A stretch of 20,728 bases of DNA from a virus: positions 1-20,728 of IMG/VR virus record IMGVR_UViG_3300030060_007509; one strand, written 5' to 3'. Shown in pieces: positions 1 through 19,355 of the stretch. The translations under genes and the position numbers were made by a program. The notes beneath the pieces are model-generated. The model saw only the letters and a program-made list of their open reading frames with translations. It had not been told where the DNA came from and did not search any database. The stretch's first letter is position 1; every line of letters begins with the position of its first letter.

Positions 1-660
1 ACAGCTATCGCTTCTACAATAGTTTGTGTTCAACCACTTGGATTCAATATGTTGGGTGGTAAACTAATCGCAGCTCTTACCACTTGTTCAGATGTTAGAA
101 ACCAATGGAAGAAAGATTATGATGATACATTGGTTGGTGTTACTACAACATCATTATATGGAGCTCACTCTCAATACAATGGAATCCCACATTGGAAAAC
201 ACTTGGTGAATCAGCTGGTAAGATTATGATTAAACCTGATGATTCAGTTTATTTAGTTTGGAATAAATGGTTAAAAGAAAATCATCCAGAAGAACATCAT
301 AAGGCTGTTACAACAACAGGCCCTAAACAGAATGTTATCAATAGAGTGTTTAGACATTTAGGTATTAAAGGTAAAGATTATGAACATGGATTCAAACGAG
401 GTGTGTTCTTTGCTAATATGTATGAGAATGGTTTAGAGTATTTAAGAAATGAAATTACAGATAAAGATTTAGTAATGAAACAAAAATATGTTTTGGATTA
501 TGATAGAATTAATTCTTGGTGGAAACCTAAAGCTATCAGAAGATACACAACATTATTTAATGACAGCAGAATTAAACCTGAGACATTATTTTATGGTGAT
601 GTAGTTGGAATGACTTGGGAAGAATGTAAAGAAAAATATATAAGTGAAGTTGGTAGATAA
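1..660 (+). CDS. DUF4338 / DruA-like protein, 5' end outside the window
   Basis: The reading frame is open from base 1, so the gene begins upstream; 219 codons and a TAA stop are visible. The first ATG inside the window (49) is unlikely to be the start because the conserved block begins before it. The visible N-terminal part has the pattern LGGKL, then W..DY, then VGVTTTSLYGAHSQYNG, then HWKTLGESAGK. This resembles the C-terminal core of DUF4338 proteins (the family of DruA from the Druantia anti-phage system), where a W...YG / T / Y.AANW..lG.T.G pattern occurs. The last 130 residues are basic and aromatic-rich (H, W, Y, R) and I do not recognise them. The biochemical activity of the family is not something I can state. 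In a phage it could take part in DNA processing, modification or inter-phage competition, which is inference. The gene ends in an A-rich run directly before the next promoter. Confidence 0.6.
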   Translation, partial: TAIASTIVCVQPLGFNMLGGKLIAALTTCSDVRNQWKKDYDDTLVGVTTTSLYGAHSQYNGIPHWKTLGESAGKIMIKPDDSVYLVWNKWLKENHPEEHHKAVTTTGPKQNVINRVFRHLGIKGKDYEHGFKRGVFFANMYENGLEYLRNEITDKDLVMKQKYVLDYDRINSWWKPKAIRRYTTLFNDSRIKPETLFYGDVVGMTWEECKEKYISEVGR

Positions 661-720
661 AAAAAAAATAAAAAAAAGCTTGACTCGTATTGCTTTTTAT
701 TCGTATATTGTAAATATAAT
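659..720 (+). promoter_or_regulatory. Sigma70-type promoter with A-tract UP-like element
   Basis: A -35 box TTGACT (680-685, 5 of 6 to consensus) is followed 18 bases later by a -10 box TATATT (704-709, 5 of 6). Directly upstream, 659-677 is an A-rich run in the position of an UP element. Transcription would start near 716, about 88 bases before the ATG at 804. This is the only strong sigma70-like promoter I see in the window. It suggests expression by unmodified host RNA polymerase early in infection. A further TATAAT occurs at 715-720 but lies too far from the -35 box. Confidence 0.6.
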
Positions 721-722
721 TC

Positions 723-787
723 GTTGGGCGTTGAAGTCAATGGACTTAACTAACCCAACATTTAATAAACCGCTCTTTATGAAGAGC
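723..787 (+). promoter_or_regulatory. Structured leader: two tandem hairpins
   Basis: Hairpin 1 is built from GTTGGG (723-728) with CCCAAC (754-759), GTT (730-732) with AAC (748-750), and AAGTC (734-738) with GACTT (743-747), closing a four-base loop AATG. Hairpin 2 is GCTCTT (772-777) with AAGAGC (782-787), closing a four-base loop TATG. A strong ribosome site (AAGGAAGG, 791-798) follows before the ATG at 804. If transcription starts near 716, hairpin 1 sits almost at the 5' end of the message, where it could stabilise the mRNA. There is no U-tract, so neither hairpin is an intrinsic terminator. I do not recognise a known riboswitch class. Confidence 0.5.
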
Positions 788-802
788 AGAAAGGAAGGCT
801 AA
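740..802 (+). CDS. Possible 20-codon leader ORF coupled to the DUF262-HNH gene
   Basis: An ATG in the loop of leader hairpin 1 opens a 20-codon frame reading MDLTNPTFNK then PLFMKSRKEG and stopping at TAA 800-802, one base before the ATG of the next gene. A second in-frame ATG lies in the loop of hairpin 2 (779). The last codons (AAG GAA GGC) contain the ribosome site of the downstream gene, so a ribosome finishing this peptide would stop at the next start codon. No good ribosome site precedes the ATG at 740, and an open frame this short can arise by chance. It could be a regulatory leader peptide, or simply a frame running through the hairpins. Confidence 0.3.
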   Translation: MDLTNPTFNKPLFMKSRKEG

Positions 803-803
803 A

Positions 804-2333
804 ATGTCTTCGACAAATACAACGGGTGTTTTAACAACCCACGATGAAGTCCTTGATTGGATTTCAGAAAACCTAAAATCAGATAATATTCCAAAATCTC
901 AAAACAGTGTTAAAGTTAGTATTGACTTTTTAAATAACTCTAATATTGATTTAAGTCCAAAAGAGTATCAACGAGAAAAAGTTGCAACAGGTGCATGGAA
1001 AGTAAATTTAGTGAAAACTTTATTGATAAATAAACATTTTCAAATTCCATCTATTCATGTTCGTATTTTTAGAAATGAAAATGGTATTCCAGTTAATTTT
1101 GAAATTCCTGATGGTCAACAGAGACTAAGTTCAATTCTTGATTTTGTTAACAACGAATTAGAGTTACCTGAAGATTTTCCAAAAGTTGATGGTAAGTATG
1201 AAATTGGTGGAATGTGCTTTAAAGATATAGTTTCAAAATACCCAGCTCTAAGAACAGAGATTCTAAACTATGGTATATCAGTAACTTTCTACGATTATTT
1301 TACCGATGAAATGGTTTCTGATTTATTTGTTAATGTACTTAATAATACAAACAATTTAAATCCACAAGAGATTCGAAACGCTATCCGAAGTGCTTTATCA
1401 TCTTATGTTCGTAACACTTCAAGAATGCCTGAGTCGTTACATAAATTATTCAATCGTTGGACAGATAAACCAAACACATTAGACGAAAGGGAATATTGGA
1501 CATACTTCTCAAAGAAATTTCCTCTTGGTAGAATGGAGGGTGATGAGTGGTTAGCTGAATTAATTTATCTTTATATGAAAGGTATGCATAAAGGAGTTAC
1601 TCCGAAGAATCTAACACAGTTTTATGATTCAACAGCTACAGAGATTAGTAATCAAGATGGTTGGAATTTTAAATCTAAACTATCATCAACTGATTTTCCA
1701 AATCTTGAAAAAGACATAAACAGACTTTTAAACATTGGTGTTAAAATTATGGAAGCTGGTAAAAATAAACAAGAGAGATTCAATAGAGTGTTTTCTTTAT
1801 TTGCAATTCTTTTCGCTGATGAAATGATGACAAGATACAATTCTTCAAATTTTGATGAAACAAAATATGTAACTCAGTTGTTTAAAACTTATGATAAATG
1901 GATGAATGAAAAAGTTTATCTTGGTGAAAAACAGGCTGATGGTAAAACTGATATGACTCCATTCAACAAATTGTTTGGTGGTAAAAACTCAAATGTTTTC
2001 AAGACAGCATATATGATTGTTGAGGGTGAAATGAAAAATCCACATGATTGGGGATTTGTAGAGTTAGACCCAAAAAGAACATTCAGTAAAAATGACATTC
2101 AAAAAAGATTGGCTGAAAATGGTGGAGTGTGTGATTATACGGGAGAACCATTATCTTTTGAAGATGCTGTTGGTGACCACTATATTCCTCACTCTTGGGG
2201 AGTATCATTAGGTGGTGTGACTGAATATTCAAACTTAGCAGTTACAACAAAGTTTCATAATTTGAAGAAACTTAACATATCTGGTGATGAATACAAATCC
2301 AAACTACAAATGGAAGAGGAGTTAGTTGCTTAA
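804..2333 (+). CDS. DUF262 + HNH endonuclease (GmrSD-type)
   Basis: This 509-residue protein joins a DUF262 domain (ParB/Srx-like fold, as in GmrS/GmrD-type restriction enzymes) to a C-terminal HNH nuclease. DUF262 hallmarks are YQR at 55-57 and the invariant DGQQR at 103-107; the middle 200 residues are helical. The HNH signature is near the end: C443-D-Y-T-G-E-P, then D458-H459, P462-H463, N477-L and H485-N. All catalytic positions look intact. Family knowledge: DUF262/HNH enzymes cut DNA, often choosing it by base modification in an NTP-stimulated way. In a phage it may degrade host or competing-phage DNA, which is inference. The start is supported by AAGGAAGG five bases upstream. Its TAA stop overlaps the ATG of the glycosyltransferase gene by one base, implying translational coupling. 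Confidence 0.85.
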   Translation: MSSTNTTGVLTTHDEVLDWISENLKSDNIPKSQNSVKVSIDFLNNSNIDLSPKEYQREKVATGAWKVNLVKTLLINKHFQIPSIHVRIFRNENGIPVNFEIPDGQQRLSSILDFVNNELELPEDFPKVDGKYEIGGMCFKDIVSKYPALRTEILNYGISVTFYDYFTDEMVSDLFVNVLNNTNNLNPQEIRNAIRSALSSYVRNTSRMPESLHKLFNRWTDKPNTLDEREYWTYFSKKFPLGRMEGDEWLAELIYLYMKGMHKGVTPKNLTQFYDSTATEISNQDGWNFKSKLSSTDFPNLEKDINRLLNIGVKIMEAGKNKQERFNRVFSLFAILFADEMMTRYNSSNFDETKYVTQLFKTYDKWMNEKVYLGEKQADGKTDMTPFNKLFGGKNSNVFKTAYMIVEGEMKNPHDWGFVELDPKRTFSKNDIQKRLAENGGVCDYTGEPLSFEDAVGDHYIPHSWGVSLGGVTEYSNLAVTTKFHNLKKLNISGDEYKSKLQMEEELVA

Positions 2334-3685
2334 TGAATTTGAATAAATTCATAGATGTCAAGGACAACGACAAGGAATATAAGTATAAGATTTTGGTATA
2401 CCCAAATATCACATATCAAAAAGATTTAGAAAAAGATTCCTATGTTGTTGTCCTCGGCAACATTATTCGTGAGTTAAATAAAGTAAGAGATGATTTACAT
2501 TGGACAATTTTTTCACCTGGTGGTGAAATTAAAAGTTTAGTGTTTCCGAATACATCACAATTACCAATTGAGTTACCACCATATCCAAACGCTATGAGAT
2601 TACATTTTAATCAAAAGCAAATTATTAAACAAATAGATTTTAGAAAAAATGATTATGATATTGTATATTCACATTTACCTGAACATACACTACAATTAAA
2701 AAATTTATTTTATAATGAAACAAATATAGAACCGAAGTTCATAGGTTATACACATTGGACAGAGTTTCCAGAGATAACAAATTATGCTATGACAGTTATG
2801 GATATAAACTTTTTAGGTTTGTTGGAAATGGAAAAGTGTGGAATTAATACAGATGCTCAGAAAAATTTAATATTACATAACGCTAAAAAGAATTTTAACA
2901 CTGATGCGATAATTAAATTATCAGAAATATTAGAACCACAATATTTAGGGTGGGAAATACCAAAGTGTAGAAAGTGTTTAGAGTATAAACCACAAGATAA
3001 AAAAATTATTGTATACAATCATAGACCTCACACTTATAAAGATTACCCGTGGTTTTTAAAACAAATGGATGAACTTTGGAAACAAAGACAAGACTTTGTG
3101 GTGTGGGTGCCTTTATCCGATTCAATTACAAAACCATATATGATAAATGACAAATATGATAGAGAGGGTTATTTTGAAAAATTATCATCATGTTATGTTG
3201 GTGTATGTTGTAAACAAAGATATGGTGGTTGGGCAGTATCTGCAACTGATGGTATGAGTGTTGGTGTACCTTATATGTTTTCAAATGATTCTTATTATAA
3301 AGAATTAGCTGGAGACACTGGTATATATTATAATGATTCACAGACATTCATAGCAACTTTAAATCATCTTCTTGATAATAAAAATGATAGAGATAATTGG
3401 TCTAAAAAATCACTACTAAGATTTGAAAGAGGTAAATGGGAAAATGCAATAAAACCATTTAATAATATGATAAATGAAACAATTAATAATTTACCAACTT
3501 TAAAAAGTGATACAGATACATACAAAAAAGTTGTGGACTTTATACACAAAAGAGGCTCTGCATCCAAAGCTGATATTTTAAATTTTTTAAATTGGGGTGT
3601 AAGAATTTCATTTAGTGGGTATAGAAATAGATTAAGAAAAGAACCAACAATTAAATTTACAAAAGATAGGTACGAGGTAAGATGA
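2333..3685 (+). CDS. GT-B fold glycosyltransferase with C-terminal winged-helix-like segment
   Basis: The 450-residue protein looks like a GT-B (GT4-like) glycosyltransferase. The N-terminal Rossmann-like half starts with YKILVYPNITYQKD (17-30). The C-terminal nucleotide-sugar half includes IIVYNHRPHTYKDY (225-238), FVVWVPL (255-261) and GGWAVSATDGMSVGVP (298-313), which matches the usual G.....EAMA.G.P loop although Asp replaces Glu. Residues 395-450 look like a separate winged helix: a helix YKKVVDFIHKRG, a helix SKADILNFLNW, a basic helix SGYRNRLRK, and a hairpin IKFTKDRYEVR. That suggests a DNA substrate (glycosylated phage DNA), but a protein or glycan acceptor is possible. It sits between the DUF262-HNH and HD genes, with a 1-base overlap upstream and a 4-base ATGA overlap downstream. 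No signal peptide is visible. Confidence 0.75.
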   Translation: MNLNKFIDVKDNDKEYKYKILVYPNITYQKDLEKDSYVVVLGNIIRELNKVRDDLHWTIFSPGGEIKSLVFPNTSQLPIELPPYPNAMRLHFNQKQIIKQIDFRKNDYDIVYSHLPEHTLQLKNLFYNETNIEPKFIGYTHWTEFPEITNYAMTVMDINFLGLLEMEKCGINTDAQKNLILHNAKKNFNTDAIIKLSEILEPQYLGWEIPKCRKCLEYKPQDKKIIVYNHRPHTYKDYPWFLKQMDELWKQRQDFVVWVPLSDSITKPYMINDKYDREGYFEKLSSCYVGVCCKQRYGGWAVSATDGMSVGVPYMFSNDSYYKELAGDTGIYYNDSQTFIATLNHLLDNKNDRDNWSKKSLLRFERGKWENAIKPFNNMINETINNLPTLKSDTDTYKKVVDFIHKRGSASKADILNFLNWGVRISFSGYRNRLRKEPTIKFTKDRYEVR

Positions 3686-4425
3686 AAAAACTAACAGCAG
3701 AACAAATACAAACAAATTGGAATACATTAATAGAGATTATTGATTCATATATTGGTAATGATAGACGAGATAATCTTTTAAAGTTTTACGATGACTTTAG
3801 AGACAGAATGATGTTTGCACCAGCTAGTGGTAAGGCAGCATTTCACAATGCGATGCCTGGTGGATATGTTGAACACATTCTTCACATTGTGGAGAACTCT
3901 TTACAACTTAAAGAGTTATGGGAGAAGAACGGAGCAGAGATTAACTTCACGGATGAGGAGTTAGTCTTTGCTGCTTTACATCACGACTTAGGTAAAGTTG
4001 GTGATTTAGAACACGACTATTACATCCCACAAGATTCAGATTGGCATAGAAAGAATCAAGGTTCTATCTATAAACACAATCCAGCTTTACAATATATGAA
4101 AGTACCTGATAGAGGATTGTGGTTACTTCAACACTATGGTGTTAAGGTTACGGATAAAGAATATTTAGGAATTAAATTAACAGATGGTTTGTATGATGAT
4201 GCTAATACATCTTATTTAAAATCATACAATCCTGATTTTAATCTTCGTTCCAATATGGCTTACATATTACATCAAGCTGATATGATGGCTACACATATTG
4301 AATTTGACCAATGGAAACGAGGTGACAATGTGGAAGAACCAATAAATACAAAAGTTCCAAAAACAAAAGATGAACAAAAACAAGTAGACAATCTCAAACA
4401 AAAGTTTGATGAGTTGTTTGCTTAG
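3682..4425 (+). CDS. HD-domain metal-dependent phosphohydrolase
   Basis: The 247-residue protein carries a complete HD metal site: H65 in GGYVEH, H101-D102 in LHHDLGKVGD, and D200 in HQADMMA. H100, H151 and H197 may contribute further ligands. The approach to the first histidine (AP.S....FHNAMPGGYVEHIL, 47-67) resembles HD domains of YhaM-type 3'-5' exonucleases and relaxase-associated HD proteins more than RelA/SpoT enzymes. A lysine-rich helix forms the C-terminus. Likely substrates are nucleotides or nucleic-acid 3' ends, for example in host nucleic-acid recycling; the sequence does not decide this. It starts inside the end of the glycosyltransferase gene (ATGA overlap) and ends with a TAG that overlaps the AGGAG ribosome site of the next gene. 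Confidence 0.8.
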   Translation: MKKLTAEQIQTNWNTLIEIIDSYIGNDRRDNLLKFYDDFRDRMMFAPASGKAAFHNAMPGGYVEHILHIVENSLQLKELWEKNGAEINFTDEELVFAALHHDLGKVGDLEHDYYIPQDSDWHRKNQGSIYKHNPALQYMKVPDRGLWLLQHYGVKVTDKEYLGIKLTDGLYDDANTSYLKSYNPDFNLRSNMAYILHQADMMATHIEFDQWKRGDNVEEPINTKVPKTKDEQKQVDNLKQKFDELFA

Positions 4426-13778: not shown

Positions 13779-16700
13779 GTGGCGAGTGAAAAAATAAAAA
13801 AACTAAATGGGGCATCCATAACAGTTGGAAATCATGGAGAGAGATTTAGCACAAGCACTGAAGGTGGTCCAGGTTTAACTGATCCTGAGGATAATCCATT
13901 TGGTACTGAAGACCTAACACCAGTACCAATGCCACCAAGACCTGATGATGATGAACACAACTCAGATGGTCATCACCACCACGAACATCAACATGGTGAT
14001 GATGATACTCCGTTTAGTGATGAATTTGAAGCAGATGAGCCAATTGATTTAATTGAGATTCAAAACTATCAATCTGAAATATTTTTTGCAGACCAAATAA
14101 GTATTCTTGACAACAATTTAGGCGAGTTAAACACTAAAATATTACGATTCCATCATATAGGTGCTAGGGGTGAAGAGAGTGCTTTAGATACCATTGAAAC
14201 AATGGGAGCATTATTACAACAATTTCCAATTCAAAATAACCTTTCAATATTAAATCTTGCAGTAGAACCATTTTACATTGTAGAGAGTGAGAAAACCCTT
14301 TTAGGTACTGGTCCTCATGATGTTCCAAGAAGGTTAACTTTTACACCTAGTAATGTCTTTGGTGACACTAATGGTGATAGATTAGCTATTTTACCATTTC
14401 CAACATATATGGAAGAATTTGATTTATCTCAACCTCGTATGGAAATTACAGCTGAAGATGCAAATCAATGGGTAAATCCAAATTATGCTTTGAGGCCTGA
14501 TATACAAGCTTTTCTTGCAGCTTATTCTCATGCACATAGAGGTGATTTAGATTCTGCTCTAAGTGTATTAGACAATTATTATAATAATGGTGGATATAAA
14601 TTTAATGAAATTCATCCTGATATGCTTCAAAATCATATTATGGAGAGACAACCATTCCCATCCATACATGGTAACACTAATTTACCTAATTATTTTCCTC
14701 TTTCTCATTTTGCTAACATTGTATCAACTTCATATAGTTTTGATTTGATAATTGATGATGAAGAAGGACTTGATATTAATACCTTTTTTATTCCAAAATT
14801 AAGATTCAAATTACTTGGTCCACAGGTAGAGTATAGAGATATTGAAGAATTTCAAGAAGTAGAACCAGAACCAGATCCTGTGGTTTTTGGTTGTATGGAT
14901 CCCGAAGCTGAGAATTATAATCCTGATGCTAATGTGGATAATGGTTCATGTGAATACTTAGGTTGTACAGACCCTTTAGCTGATAATTATGATTCTAATG
15001 CTAATGTGGATGATGGTTCATGTTATTATTCAGATGAAATTGTTATTGATGAAGATGACCCAATTAACGATATACTTACGGACAACTACTCAGAAGATGA
15101 AGAAATATCAGAAAATTTTGGTTTAGGGGAAGGTTATGAAGGTATTATTGAACAAACAATTTATAAACCATTCGACCCATTTAGTGGGATGGATATTAAT
15201 CTAACTAATTTTAATGAAACTGGTAGTACACAACAAAGTTTTATTGATCATGACTCTGATGGTAGAATTTCATTAGGTATGTTTGTATTTAGTGATGATG
15301 ATAATATATTGGAAGATGATTTTCAAGACACACTTAACGAACCATTTAAACAATATAATAAACCAAATTTAGTTCCGAACCCTCAAGGTAGATTTGTAAA
15401 AAGTATTTGGCAAAATAATTATGGAAATGAGGGTGATGAGGGTGCAAGGGAACGATTTTTCATACCTGAAAATGGTTGGGGATATTGTACTTATGATGCT
15501 TTACGAATTGCAGATAAAAAAAGAAATGAGAATTTGTATCAAGGTGGGGATGATTATGCGGATGATGATTTTTGGGGTGATGCTCAAGAAAATATAACTA
15601 ATGGTTCTGAATTTATATCATCATTTGAACAACAGAGTAGTGATGGAACTCAAGACTCTCAAGGTGTGATTGGTTACGCTGGGTATCATGCTTATTTCTT
15701 TGATTATCAACTTGGATCTGGACATGCCGAACAATCACTTTTAAGATTACAACACAATCTCGAAACTGCTTCAATACAAACATCAGACCAATTTAATGAA
15801 TGTAATAAATTTTTTATGCAAAATCAAATTGATAGTTTAGGCTATCAAGAAGATGAATTAAATGATGGACAAATTCCAGCCGCTTCAAATCACGCTTCAT
15901 ACATTTCTCCTCGTAAATGCACGGCTGTAGGTAATCGACCAAGTGATTCAAATAATTCACTTCCTTATAAAGATACTTGGTTTCCAAATGTTGCAAAATG
16001 GATTATTGATAAAGACTTTTCATTTGATTGGGAACAAGAAGTTCAATGTTATTCATTTGGAAGATGTTTAGAATTTTTAGGAACTAATTTTAAAGAAGGT
16101 GATTTTGATTGGAATGATAGTGGTGGTGATGATGTACTTAATAAGGATTTTGAATGGGATAATCATACAAATATGAATGTTGGTGCTGGTGGTGGTATAA
16201 CCCAAAATCAATACAGAGGTTTAAATCAAGTTATTAAAATTTATAATCCATATGCGCAAGATGAAATTAGTGAAATAACCCCATTTACCATAATGGAAGT
16301 TAAATTCAAAATGAAATCTTTAGATTTATATTCTGATGAAAATCCTGGATTACAAGGTGTAATGTATGATGAGAATAATCCACCACAGGTTGAAATTGCA
16401 ATTGTAGATGGAGATAGTGCTACAATGAATCCATTAAGAACAAGGAATAGAGTTGAGGGGGCTAGAGATTTACCATATGCATATCAACATGGATATTGGC
16501 CACATGGTGATTTTAATTCCACAAGATATAATGATGATTTAAATTCACCAAATACACTTGATAGAAAATACTCTAACTTTGGCTCAATGGGTAGATTTCA
16601 AAACACTAAACCAAATAAATGGGAAACATTTTCTTATAAATTCACATTAGGTGAAGTTTTCCGTTATAATACTGGAACTTTTAGACCAATGTGGTTAATT

Positions 16701-19355
16701 GTTCAAGCAGCTGGTGAATTTTATGGAAGAGTTTTATTAGATGATTTTGAAGTTCGTGAATCATATGATTTCATACCTGATGTTGATGTTAGAAAAAAAA
16801 TATCCATTGGTGTATATGGTAAAGGTGATTTAACAAAATATTATGATAGGGATTTACAACCTGAAGAATATAAAGATACACAAGCACCATTGGAAGCTCA
16901 ATTTTATTTTTATCCACAACATTCAAGTGATGAAATTTTTAATGTAAAAAGAACTCCAATTTATCAAGATTTTAAAAAAGGTAAGTTTTATATCTATGAT
17001 GTAGATTGGGGAGATGGTTCACCAAAAGAATTTACATCTAAACCTGAACTAATAGATGAAAACACAGCGTTATATCATACATTTGAATCAAGTGGTGTAT
17101 TTGAAATTACAGGAACGATGTTAAGAATGAAAGTAAATACATCTGCAGAAGAAGTTGGTATTGCAAAAAATAAAAAATTTAGATTAAGAATAAATGTTAA
17201 TTCAGGTGCAGATGAAGATTTTCAATACTTTGGTGGAGATGGTTTTTCATTCATACCATATAAAAACACATTACCAATTGTAGGTGGTTACTCGGAACAA
17301 AGTATTTATTATAAAGCTATAGAAAGACAACTTGGATTTATAAGTGATGATATAAAAACAGATATTTTCTTTAAATATAGAGGTGATAAACTAAAAACAG
17401 AGATAGCATTAAACACACTTGATTCATCTTTTCAAGAAGATTTAAACTTATTAAATGAATATAAAATACCTAGAGGAACTGATGGTGTTGAACTTATAAC
17501 AAATGGTGATTTTTCTACTGGAGATTTAACTGATTGGGATACAGGTGGTGATGTGACATTCAATAATGGTGGGATACGAATAGTTTCAAATGATAATGGT
17601 GATCTTGCATATGCGAGACAACGAATGTTAACAATTGGTGAAGAATATATATTTACATATGATGTAATAGATAATTTTTCTACTCATACTGGAAATAATA
17701 ATTTACATCTTGAATTATCAAGTGGAGATGTAGATATGCCCAATACTTATCCAGGTCAGGCAGCTACAACAAGAAATTCAATAATTTTTACAGCTGATAA
17801 CGAAAACTTTATAATAAAAAGAGGAGGTAAGAACATAGATGTTACCCTTGATAATATTTCAGTTTCTTTATCATCCAATCCTGTAGGAATTATTTACAAT
17901 GGAATAAAATCATATCCAAGTGAATTGGGAAAATCAATTGGTGATACGGATCTTACGAATATAAAATTTTATAATAAAGCGATGGATATTGTTGAATTGT
18001 TAGGTTTTGAATGTAATGAATTTAGTGAAGTGAACACTATAAAATTAACTAATCCTCACAATGGTGCTAATTATCGTCATCATGGTTTGGCTGAGATAGA
18101 TGTTTTACCATCAGATGTGGGAATAACTCTTCCTGAAGGTACTGAAAATCCTGCAACTGTGACACTGATATATGATGATTTTAATAGTGAAACTGATAAC
18201 AATCATATGAGAGTTGGTTATAGATTTAGAGTTAACAATGAAGATGATATTCAATATGTTGATGCTGGTAATTCAAATCTTAGAGTTCCAACACCTTATT
18301 TAAAAGCTGGAAAAACATATACATTCTCTACTCATATATACATACCCGATGGTTTTGAATCACAAGGTGGTGGCAATCAAATACAACTTGGTGTTATTCA
18401 AACTCCCGCTGATAATGATTGGGCAGCTCACGAAAATTTTTTAGAAAGTAATTTTTGTTGCACTGAGGAAAAATTTGAAGAAGGTTTATGCATGTTTGAT
18501 GGGGAGGAAAGAGTAAATGACGACCAAATCTCATATGGTGCATCTCTTCAATGGGCGTATTATGCAGGTTGTTATTATAACAACTATGGAGATATGGCTA
18601 GTAAGGGGGAAACTCCAAAAGGGATGACTTATACCGTATTAGATACTGCTCCAGTAGATGAAAATAATCAATGGTATAGAATGTCAGGAACATTCACACC
18701 ATTAAATCCTGATGAATATGGTGACTATTTATCGTTTAGAATTATACCATATGAGGTGGGGAGGCCATATATTACAGATGATATATATTATGTTGTTGGA
18801 GCTCAACTTGAAGAAGGTGATACAATGAGCCCATACACAACTCAAGATATAGATTTTGGAGATTGTTTAAGATATGATTCAAACATACCTGATAATCCAA
18901 GATATTGGAAAAACATCATTCCTGAAGATTACTCTATTTATAATAGAGAAGGTATTAATACAAATCCAGGTTGGGAGGGTACGAAACCAATTGATATATT
19001 TGTGGAACAAGAGTGGTTGGATTTAGATGATGATGGTGAACCTGATTATTATTATCCTGTTTTACCAAACTATGGTTTAGATGGAAAATTTATTGAAGGT
19101 AATTTAACAAATAATAAAATACCATTTCCATTAGAGGGAAAAATAACTGAAGAAGATGAATCAAATGAAAACTTATTAATTAATGTTACAAGTCAAAAAA
19201 TTGAGGGTAATGTATTTAATGATAATAGTGGAAACCAAAACTTAGGGTTTAGTTTTTCTGATTATAAACCTAACTTTGACAATAAAAGTTTTAAGCCAAA
19301 GAAAAGAAAAAATACAGATTTAATGAAAACTTCAACTAACAATGGGGCATTTTAA
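13779..19355 (+). CDS. Giant modular tail/adhesin-like protein (1858 residues)
   Basis: The start is a GTG with GGGGG (13766-13770) eight bases upstream; no ATG is available in frame after the previous stop. Modules in order: a Pro/Asp-rich N-terminus with a His-rich acidic loop (60-73: eight residues of His in fourteen, between Asp runs); an unrecognised region (90-360); two 24-residue Cys...Cys repeats (371-417); a calcium-like loop D490-x-D492-x-D494-G; an acidic, Trp-rich unrecognised region (500-1050); a PKD-like domain (about 1055-1135, DVDWGDGSP and HTFESSGVFEITG); a carbohydrate-binding-like domain opening NGDFSTGDLTDW (about 1240-1370); and a C-terminal beta domain (about 1400-1690, GKTYTFSTHIYIP to VVGAQLEEGDTMSPYTT). 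No membrane segment or signal peptide. Most likely a large baseplate-periphery or receptor-binding protein; the exact role is unknown. Confidence 0.7.
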   Translation: MASEKIKKLNGASITVGNHGERFSTSTEGGPGLTDPEDNPFGTEDLTPVPMPPRPDDDEHNSDGHHHHEHQHGDDDTPFSDEFEADEPIDLIEIQNYQSEIFFADQISILDNNLGELNTKILRFHHIGARGEESALDTIETMGALLQQFPIQNNLSILNLAVEPFYIVESEKTLLGTGPHDVPRRLTFTPSNVFGDTNGDRLAILPFPTYMEEFDLSQPRMEITAEDANQWVNPNYALRPDIQAFLAAYSHAHRGDLDSALSVLDNYYNNGGYKFNEIHPDMLQNHIMERQPFPSIHGNTNLPNYFPLSHFANIVSTSYSFDLIIDDEEGLDINTFFIPKLRFKLLGPQVEYRDIEEFQEVEPEPDPVVFGCMDPEAENYNPDANVDNGSCEYLGCTDPLADNYDSNANVDDGSCYYSDEIVIDEDDPINDILTDNYSEDEEISENFGLGEGYEGIIEQTIYKPFDPFSGMDINLTNFNETGSTQQSFIDHDSDGRISLGMFVFSDDDNILEDDFQDTLNEPFKQYNKPNLVPNPQGRFVKSIWQNNYGNEGDEGARERFFIPENGWGYCTYDALRIADKKRNENLYQGGDDYADDDFWGDAQENITNGSEFISSFEQQSSDGTQDSQGVIGYAGYHAYFFDYQLGSGHAEQSLLRLQHNLETASIQTSDQFNECNKFFMQNQIDSLGYQEDELNDGQIPAASNHASYISPRKCTAVGNRPSDSNNSLPYKDTWFPNVAKWIIDKDFSFDWEQEVQCYSFGRCLEFLGTNFKEGDFDWNDSGGDDVLNKDFEWDNHTNMNVGAGGGITQNQYRGLNQVIKIYNPYAQDEISEITPFTIMEVKFKMKSLDLYSDENPGLQGVMYDENNPPQVEIAIVDGDSATMNPLRTRNRVEGARDLPYAYQHGYWPHGDFNSTRYNDDLNSPNTLDRKYSNFGSMGRFQNTKPNKWETFSYKFTLGEVFRYNTGTFRPMWLIVQAAGEFYGRVLLDDFEVRESYDFIPDVDVRKKISIGVYGKGDLTKYYDRDLQPEEYKDTQAPLEAQFYFYPQHSSDEIFNVKRTPIYQDFKKGKFYIYDVDWGDGSPKEFTSKPELIDENTALYHTFESSGVFEITGTMLRMKVNTSAEEVGIAKNKKFRLRINVNSGADEDFQYFGGDGFSFIPYKNTLPIVGGYSEQSIYYKAIERQLGFISDDIKTDIFFKYRGDKLKTEIALNTLDSSFQEDLNLLNEYKIPRGTDGVELITNGDFSTGDLTDWDTGGDVTFNNGGIRIVSNDNGDLAYARQRMLTIGEEYIFTYDVIDNFSTHTGNNNLHLELSSGDVDMPNTYPGQAATTRNSIIFTADNENFIIKRGGKNIDVTLDNISVSLSSNPVGIIYNGIKSYPSELGKSIGDTDLTNIKFYNKAMDIVELLGFECNEFSEVNTIKLTNPHNGANYRHHGLAEIDVLPSDVGITLPEGTENPATVTLIYDDFNSETDNNHMRVGYRFRVNNEDDIQYVDAGNSNLRVPTPYLKAGKTYTFSTHIYIPDGFESQGGGNQIQLGVIQTPADNDWAAHENFLESNFCCTEEKFEEGLCMFDGEERVNDDQISYGASLQWAYYAGCYYNNYGDMASKGETPKGMTYTVLDTAPVDENNQWYRMSGTFTPLNPDEYGDYLSFRIIPYEVGRPYITDDIYYVVGAQLEEGDTMSPYTTQDIDFGDCLRYDSNIPDNPRYWKNIIPEDYSIYNREGINTNPGWEGTKPIDIFVEQEWLDLDDDGEPDYYYPVLPNYGLDGKFIEGNLTNNKIPFPLEGKITEEDESNENLLINVTSQKIEGNVFNDNSGNQNLGFSFSDYKPNFDNKSFKPKKRKNTDLMKTSTNNGAF
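14889..15032 (+). repeat. Two in-frame 72-base repeats encoding Cys-Asp-Pro...Asp-Gly-Ser-Cys units
   Basis: Two adjacent 72-base units (14889-14960 and 14961-15032) each encode 24 residues with the pattern G-C-x-D-P-x-A-x-N-Y-x-x-x-A-N-V-D-x-G-S-C. Cysteines lie at 372/391 and 396/415, with exactly one unit length between copies. The DNA of the copies is most alike around GCTAATGTGGAT and ATGGTTCATGT. Units of this type are frequent in secreted, surface-bound proteins of marine Bacteroidetes and also appear in marine phages. They are rich in Asp/Asn and may bind calcium. Confidence 0.85.

What the first reader, a model, noticed from the sequence alone, without database searches (positions are those of the whole stretch)
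1..3685. DruA-like protein, DUF262-HNH nuclease and glycosyltransferase side by side in a phage
Three neighbouring genes carry domains known from anti-phage or DNA-modification biology: DUF4338 (DruA of Druantia), DUF262+HNH (GmrSD-type, modification-dependent cleavage) and a GT-B glycosyltransferase with a DNA-binding-like tail. In a lytic phage such a set could mark self DNA by glycosylation and destroy unmarked host or rival DNA. Domain calls come from motifs; the joint function is inference. The DruA-like gene lies before the promoter and may belong to another transcript.
Basis: partly seen in the sequence, partly recalled or inferred. Interest (0 to 1): 0.6.

Follow-up and report, generated by a model that had tools for sequence, protein, structure and literature searches.

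The report
Phage locus swapping DNA-cutting enzymes
Related marine viruses of bacteria keep two genes that probably decorate their DNA and, in one fixed spot between them, carry a different probable DNA-cutting enzyme from virus to virus, which looks like a 'mark yourself, cut the others' weapon, although no activity has been measured.

Summary
The three genes are real and in the order described. Gene 1 is the C-terminal part of a DruA-domain protein, cut by the contig end; gene 2 is DUF262 (DGQQR) plus HNH; gene 3 is a GT4-like GT-B glycosyltransferase with a winged-helix tail. In IMG/VR phages of this T4-like lineage DruA and the glycosyltransferase are a fixed pair, and the gap between them is a cargo slot: 36 of 44 distinct loci are occupied, 8 are empty with the two genes abutting. 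Cargo falls into about 20 unrelated families, mostly predicted nucleases, sometimes with clear DNA-modification genes (Mom, TAGT, Dam). Nuclease cargo occurs almost only where the glycosyltransferase is present. The DruA-like protein is not part of a Druantia system; its model is a GNAT fold whose best structural match is phage Mu Mom. Best reading: acyltransferase and glycosyltransferase mark phage DNA, and an interchangeable nuclease attacks DNA lacking the mark, in rival phages or host. Precedents exist (predicted Mom-nuclease fusions in jumbo phages), so this is a new variant of a known kind. Homing endonucleases sharing one insertion site remain the main rival. Nothing biochemical is shown.

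The parts
1..660 (+). DruA-like (PF14236/DUF4338) gene, C-terminal part, 5' end cut by the contig end; predicted Mom-like GNAT acyltransferase
   Evidence: Pfam DruA 4.5e-11; AF2 model of the full-length relative in L021 (97% identical over the shared part), pLDDT 90.5; best VIA-align match phage Mu Mom 8bv8, Z 9.8, 172 aligned, rmsd 4.1; directly upstream of the slot in every sampled glycosyltransferase locus with >=3 kb upstream
680..709 (+). sigma70-like promoter TTGACT-18-TATATT of the cargo gene
   Evidence: 10 of 12 matches, not above shuffles as a scan; same AAAAGCTTGACT...TATATT block after the DruA stop in L022, L023, L025, L026, L092 with unrelated cargo
723..811 (+). structured leader of the cargo gene: hairpins 723-759, 772-787 and 794-811, the last over the start codon
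   Evidence: RNA fold of 715-812: -29.8 kcal/mol, z -5.1, 0 of 200 shuffles
804..2333 (+). slot cargo: DUF262/ParB-superfamily NTPase-like domain (DGQQR 1110-1124) + HNH nuclease (2130-2261)
   Evidence: GmrSD_N 2e-7; PADLOC NsnA 1.9e-19, PD-T4-2_A 5e-8; HNH residues invariant in 8 relatives
2333..3685 (+). GT4-like GT-B glycosyltransferase; start codon overlaps the cargo stop (TAATG)
   Evidence: Glycos_transf_1 2e-5; Foldseek MshA 1.6e-13; VIA Z 27.8; junctions
3527..3682 (+). winged-helix-like tail of the glycosyltransferase (...YRNRLRKEPTIKFTKDRYEVR), among its best conserved parts
   Evidence: helix-helix-helix-strand-strand in the model; invariant YRNRLR in 14 relatives
3682..4425 (+). 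HD-domain protein, conserved right flank of the locus
   Evidence: PHROG metal-dependent phosphohydrolase 3.5e-12; follows the glycosyltransferase, or DruA directly, in relatives

Best explanation
The locus is a phage-borne, polymorphic modification-and-restriction cassette. The DruA-like GNAT acyltransferase and the glycosyltransferase modify phage DNA: most likely an acyl group is put on a base, as phage Mu Mom does, and that adduct or another base handle is then glycosylated; the winged-helix tail presents the DNA. The interchangeable gene between them makes a nuclease whose ParB/DUF262-type NTPase-like domain recognises or licenses DNA and whose HNH, PD-ExK or GIY-YIG-like domain cuts DNA lacking the right mark, i.e. 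DNA of co-infecting phages and possibly of the host. Cargo turnover by recombination between conserved flanking genes keeps changing the weapon, and the glycosyltransferase donor domain varies with it. Shown: gene order, slot polymorphism, empty and occupied sites, domain and fold matches, association of nuclease cargo with the glycosyltransferase. Inferred: that DNA is the substrate, the chemistry, self-protection, and the target.
For: Slot: DruA-to-GT distance runs from -3 to 2911 nt (sd 850), while the junctions GT-HD, HD-g5, g5-sigma and gp25-gp6 vary by sd 4-54 nt. Of 44 distinct GT-bearing loci 36 are occupied and 8 empty; about 20 unrelated cargo families. Empty and occupied sites share the same junctions, DruA stop to GT start. 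Nuclease domains: DUF262+HNH, ParB GxxR plus invariant D/E-x-K in proteins down to 19% identity, GIY-YIG-like Y, YxG, E plus ParB-like, library-wide counts. DNA-modification enzymes in the slot: Mom 3e-41, Dam 3e-26, TAGT 8e-11. Nuclease only where GT is: loci found through DruA alone 14/3 against 1/20, p 9e-7. GT without nuclease exists and nuclease without GT is nearly absent, the asymmetry expected of protection and restriction. GT similarity is higher between loci with the same cargo after correcting for the flanking HD gene, permutation p 2e-4. DruA fold: best structural match Mu Mom; DUF4338 described as GNAT (PMC10853773). The same GT family sits before four tandem Mom genes in L192 and behind a Mom gene in L162; Mom genes occur in 7 of 14 long related records above cut-off.
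Against: No modification or cleavage has been measured. Profile comparison of DruA-like and Mom proteins is not significant; only the fold supports the link, and Mom leads generic GNATs by just about 1 Z unit (9.8 against 8.7). No hydroxymethylating enzyme (PF00303) or TAGT was found in 14 incomplete records, so the glycosylation acceptor is unknown. GT4 enzymes mostly act on non-DNA acceptors. Several cargos (L010 GHKL, L013, L015, L018, L025) are not recognisable nucleases. Linkage of cargo and GT could come from physical adjacency alone. Loci share ancestry, so p-values overstate independence.
Confidence: 0.55

Rival explanations
1. The slot is a shared insertion site for selfish, free-standing homing endonucleases. 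HNH, GIY-YIG-like and other nucleases cleave cargo-free alleles in co-infecting phages and are copied in by recombination; DruA and GT are only the flanking genes, and GT divergence is co-conversion or marker exclusion.
For: Polymorphic presence with clean empty sites between the same two genes; HNH and GIY-YIG-like domains typical of homing enzymes; four cargo proteins match PHROG_314 'homing endonuclease'; homing nucleases can act in phage competition (PMC11620839).
Against: Many unrelated families would have to target one junction; most carry ParB/DUF262/DGQHR domains typical of conflict systems rather than homing; modification enzymes (Mom, TAGT, Dam) also occupy the slot; nuclease cargo is almost absent at the same DruA-HD junction when GT is missing.
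Confidence: 0.2
2. The glycosyltransferase alters the host envelope (superinfection exclusion), and the slot is a collection of unrelated exclusion or counter-defence genes.
For: GT4 fold neighbours include lipopolysaccharide enzymes; glycosyltransferases of pelagimyophages were proposed to alter the O-chain (PMC7029224).
Against: Winged-helix tail, constant pairing with a Mom-fold gene, and the GT-Mom-Mom-Mom-Mom array in L192.
Confidence: 0.1
3. The nucleases degrade host DNA for nucleotide salvage, with DruA/GT marking only to spare phage DNA.
For: T4-like phages do degrade host DNA (general knowledge, no tool result); the modification half would be the same as in the best explanation.
Against: A housekeeping function does not explain turnover among about 20 cargo families or empty slots.
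Confidence: 0.1

Closest known systems
Mom (methylcarbamoyladenine) modification of phage Mu, and the Mom-REase fusions predicted in jumbo phages (PMC7824862)
   Same: GNAT-fold enzyme in a phage; modification partnered with a nuclease proposed to attack host or superinfecting phage DNA; true Mom genes appear in this same slot in relatives
   Different: Here the conserved acyltransferase is DruA-like rather than Mom by sequence, a glycosyltransferase is added, and the nuclease is a separate, interchangeable gene of many families
GmrSD / type IV modification-dependent restriction, and other DUF262-HNH proteins (SspE, BrxU; from memory)
   Same: DUF262 with DGQQR plus an HNH-type nuclease, and a link to modified DNA
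   Different: C-terminal domain is not GmrSD_C (DUF1524); encoded by a phage beside modification genes; only one of many cargo families
Druantia (DruA)
   Same: DruA domain (PF14236)
   Different: No DruE-type helicase neighbour and no MZB domain in 14 long records; phage backbone gene, not a host defence island
TET-associated and T4-type DNA glycosyltransferases
   Same: Likely DNA glycosylation; a TAGT gene shares the slot in L022, L155 and L170
   Different: This GT is GT4-like GT-B with a winged-helix tail and no match to TAGT or T4 glucosyltransferase families
Phage homing endonucleases used in interference competition (PMC11620839)
   Same: Phage nucleases with polymorphic presence, possibly acting on co-infecting phages
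   Different: ParB/DUF262-type domains, association with modification genes, unrelated families at one site

Membership tests
Druantia defence system | DruA domain protein | tested here: met
   Pfam 4.5e-11, above cut-off
Druantia defence system | DruE helicase with MZB/DUF1998 region beside DruA | tested here: not met
   absent from the window and from related slots; MZB 0 of 14 long, incomplete records with working controls
Mom DNA-modifying acyltransferases | Mom sequence family PF25680 | tested here: not met
   gene 1 hits only DruA; hhalign DruA against Mom not significant
Mom DNA-modifying acyltransferases | GNAT fold closest to Mom | tested here: met
   Mu Mom 8bv8 top, Z 9.8, next GNATs 8.7
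Mom DNA-modifying acyltransferases | acyl modification of adenine in DNA | not testable with these tools
   needs nucleoside mass spectrometry
GmrSD / type IV restriction | GmrSD_N (DUF262) with DGQQR | tested here: met
   window 2e-7, just under cut-off, DGQQR present; relatives L005 and L057 above cut-off
GmrSD / type IV restriction | GmrSD_C (DUF1524) domain | tested here: not met
   no such hit; the C-terminus is a different HNH
GmrSD / type IV restriction | cleavage that depends on DNA modification | not testable with these tools
   needs a cleavage assay
Restriction-modification cassette | modification enzyme genetically linked to the nuclease | tested here: inconclusive
   predicted modification genes GT and DruA flank every occupied slot; proven-family Mom, TAGT or Dam genes are in several slots; activity of DruA and GT on DNA not shown
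Restriction-modification cassette | nuclease not found without its protecting enzyme | tested here: met
   14/3 with GT against 1/20 without, DruA-seeded loci; one exception, L087
Free-standing homing endonuclease | optional insertion between conserved genes | tested here: met
   empty and occupied junctions
Free-standing homing endonuclease | cleavage of the cargo-free allele | not testable with these tools
   needs a cleavage or cross assay
DNA glycosyltransferase | match to a known DNA glycosyltransferase family (TAGT, T4 type) | tested here: not met
   Pfam gives only Glycos_transf_1 and a weak Glyco_trans_1_4; PHROGs gives nothing

The most novel reading that the evidence does not exclude
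A viral 'polymorphic R-M' system: a two-step base hypermodification (DruA-type acylation, then glycosylation with a sugar set by an exchangeable donor domain) that acts as an identity badge, paired with a constantly exchanged nuclease that destroys genomes wearing another badge or none. This would be the phage counterpart of bacterial polymorphic toxin-immunity loci, used in phage-phage warfare.
Probability: 0.25. Interest if true: 0.82.

Novelty: new variant of a known kind. Interest (0 to 1): 0.62.

Why it matters
It suggests a function for DruA-domain proteins outside Druantia (Mom-like DNA acylation), a candidate new class of DNA glycosyltransferase, and a fixed genomic address where phages exchange nucleases. 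If right, it turns inter-phage competition through DNA marks into a directly testable system and gives a way to mine many unstudied ParB/DUF262/DGQHR nucleases from one locus.

Tried and rejected
Reading gene 1 as Druantia defence: rejected (no DruE neighbour; backbone gene in phages). Exact trio as the conserved unit: rejected. Close relatives of gene 2 in annotated phages, in viral contigs by single sequence and in bacterial genomes by alignment: none found, although the viral scan uses exact peptide patterns and missed relatives later found through the GT. Sequence-profile link DruA-Mom: not significant. A base hydroxylation source for glycosylation (PF00303, Tet_JBP) in long records: none found; the Tet_JBP search had no working control. 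PDB sequence searches for the DruA, DUF262-HNH and GIY-YIG-like profiles: no informative match. Literature: no held paper combines Druantia/DruA with Mom or was seen to describe this locus. Rfam and tRNA scans of the window: nothing.
Full report
What is in the window. The record is a 20.7 kb IMG/VR virus fragment of a T4-like phage: an AT-rich, one-strand run of genes with a late-sigma-like protein, gp25 and a gp6-like baseplate protein. The nearest cultured relatives by backbone genes are Flavobacterium phages of the genus Immutovirus, whose annotated region shows the HD-protein and baseplate order but no annotated DruA or GT gene; DruA-like homologues are known in Pelagibacter and Synechococcus phages. 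The three genes of the finding are confirmed, with two caveats: gene 1 is cut at its 5' end, and the DUF262 and GT Pfam scores of the window's own proteins fall just below the curated cut-offs although motifs, relatives and models support them.

The slot. Searching IMG/VR with the GT and then with DruA gave many related loci. Three backbone states appear: DruA directly followed by the HD gene (no GT, no cargo); DruA-GT-HD with an empty slot; and DruA-cargo-GT-HD. After removing duplicate contigs and near-identical loci, 44 GT-bearing loci have 36 occupied and 8 empty slots; of 21 loci without GT, 14 are empty, six carry a second DruA gene (in some with further genes such as a Mom pair), and one (L087) carries a nuclease-like gene. 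The slot length varies from -3 to 2911 nt, while most neighbouring junctions barely vary. In empty sites the DruA stop overlaps the GT start (TAATG); in occupied sites the cargo stop overlaps it in the same way. In the window and five distinct relatives with unrelated cargo a very similar promoter block (AAAAGCTTGACT...TATATT) follows the DruA stop, so it seems to belong to the slot rather than to one cargo.

The cargo. About 20 unrelated families of at least 140 aa occupy the 36 slots. The recurrent ones share a plan: a ParB/DUF262/DGQHR-type domain joined to a nuclease domain. These are DUF262+HNH (window, L005, L057, L137, L142, L148), DGQHR+HNH (L016, L164), ParB+PD-ExK with invariant GxxR and D/E-x-K across proteins of only 19-20% identity to the reference (L023, L026, L082, L123, L147), and GIY-YIG-like+ParB-like. 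The GIY-YIG and PD-ExK calls rest on motifs; library hits are few. Clear DNA-modification enzymes also sit in the slot: Mom (3e-41), D12 adenine methyltransferase (3e-26) and TAGT (8e-11; PHROG beta-glucosyl-HMC-alpha-glucosyltransferase 9e-28). A few cargos are not recognised.

Association. Using only loci found through DruA, so not selected for GT, nuclease-type cargo occurs in 14 of 17 GT-bearing loci and 1 of 21 GT-less loci (p 9e-7; loci are not independent, and the counts were made by hand). GT without nuclease is found repeatedly, nuclease without GT almost never. Every GT locus with at least 3 kb of upstream sequence has DruA directly upstream of the slot, while DruA without GT is common; this suggests, but does not prove, that GT works on or after the DruA product. 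GT identity is higher between loci with related cargo after regressing out HD identity (permutation p 2e-4). Window-type and L012-type GTs keep about 67% identity in the N-terminal domain and 72% in the tail, but 35% in the donor-binding domain, with the HD neighbour at about 90%. That looks like a donor-domain exchange and hence perhaps a different sugar.

DruA as a Mom-like enzyme. The model of a full-length relative (L021, 97% identical to the window over the shared part) is confident (pLDDT 90.5). Foldseek gives only weak GNAT hits; the second-look aligner puts phage Mu Mom first (Z 9.8, 172 residues, rmsd 4.1) ahead of generic GNATs at 8.7 and lower. A published analysis also calls DUF4338 a GNAT domain (PMC10853773). 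Sequence profiles do not detect the Mom link. Independent context supports DNA as substrate: the same GT family stands before four tandem Mom genes in L192 and behind a Mom gene in L162, and Mom genes occur above cut-off in 7 of 14 long related records.

Interpretation. The pattern fits a modification-restriction cassette with exchangeable nucleases better than a chance cluster, a Druantia system or an envelope-modifying GT. The main rival is a common insertion site for homing endonucleases. The precedent is the prediction that jumbo-phage Mom domains fused to nucleases protect phage DNA and attack host or superinfecting DNA (PMC7824862); the present locus differs in having a DruA-like acyltransferase, a glycosyltransferase and an interchangeable nuclease slot. 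All functional steps are inference from sequence, fold and genome context.

Noticed in passing
window 723-811: The 5' leader of the DUF262-HNH gene is strongly structured (z -5.1); the last hairpin covers the start codon, suggesting control of nuclease translation.
   Followed up: partly
L192 806-4721: The same GT family directly followed by four tandem Mom-like genes in an otherwise unrelated contig.
   Followed up: partly
records behind L050, L054, L084, L090 (G003, G012, G014, G013): Two to three strong Mom-like genes, adjacent copies, in each of these long phage records.
   Followed up: no
L025 8704, L026 3402, L092 336: Unrelated cargo proteins begin with the same leader peptide MIKTS..YK just behind the shared promoter, as if new cargo were fused to a resident start.
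   Followed up: no
L052 2137-3598; L039, L041, L049-L051: In loci without GT the site behind DruA holds a second DruA gene, and in L052 also two Mom genes.
   Followed up: partly
between the sigma-like gene and g7 in some relatives: Gap of up to 2870 nt, possibly a second variable insertion spot.
   Followed up: no
window 13779-19355: ORF of 1858 aa with a His-rich N-terminal part and two GC(M/T)DPxAxNYxxxANVDxGSC repeats, probably structural.
   Followed up: no
L164 494-1303 and L191 3164-3853: A possible second glycosyltransferase (called by eye, no library hit obtained) shares the DruA-GT neighbourhood in two loci.
   Followed up: no
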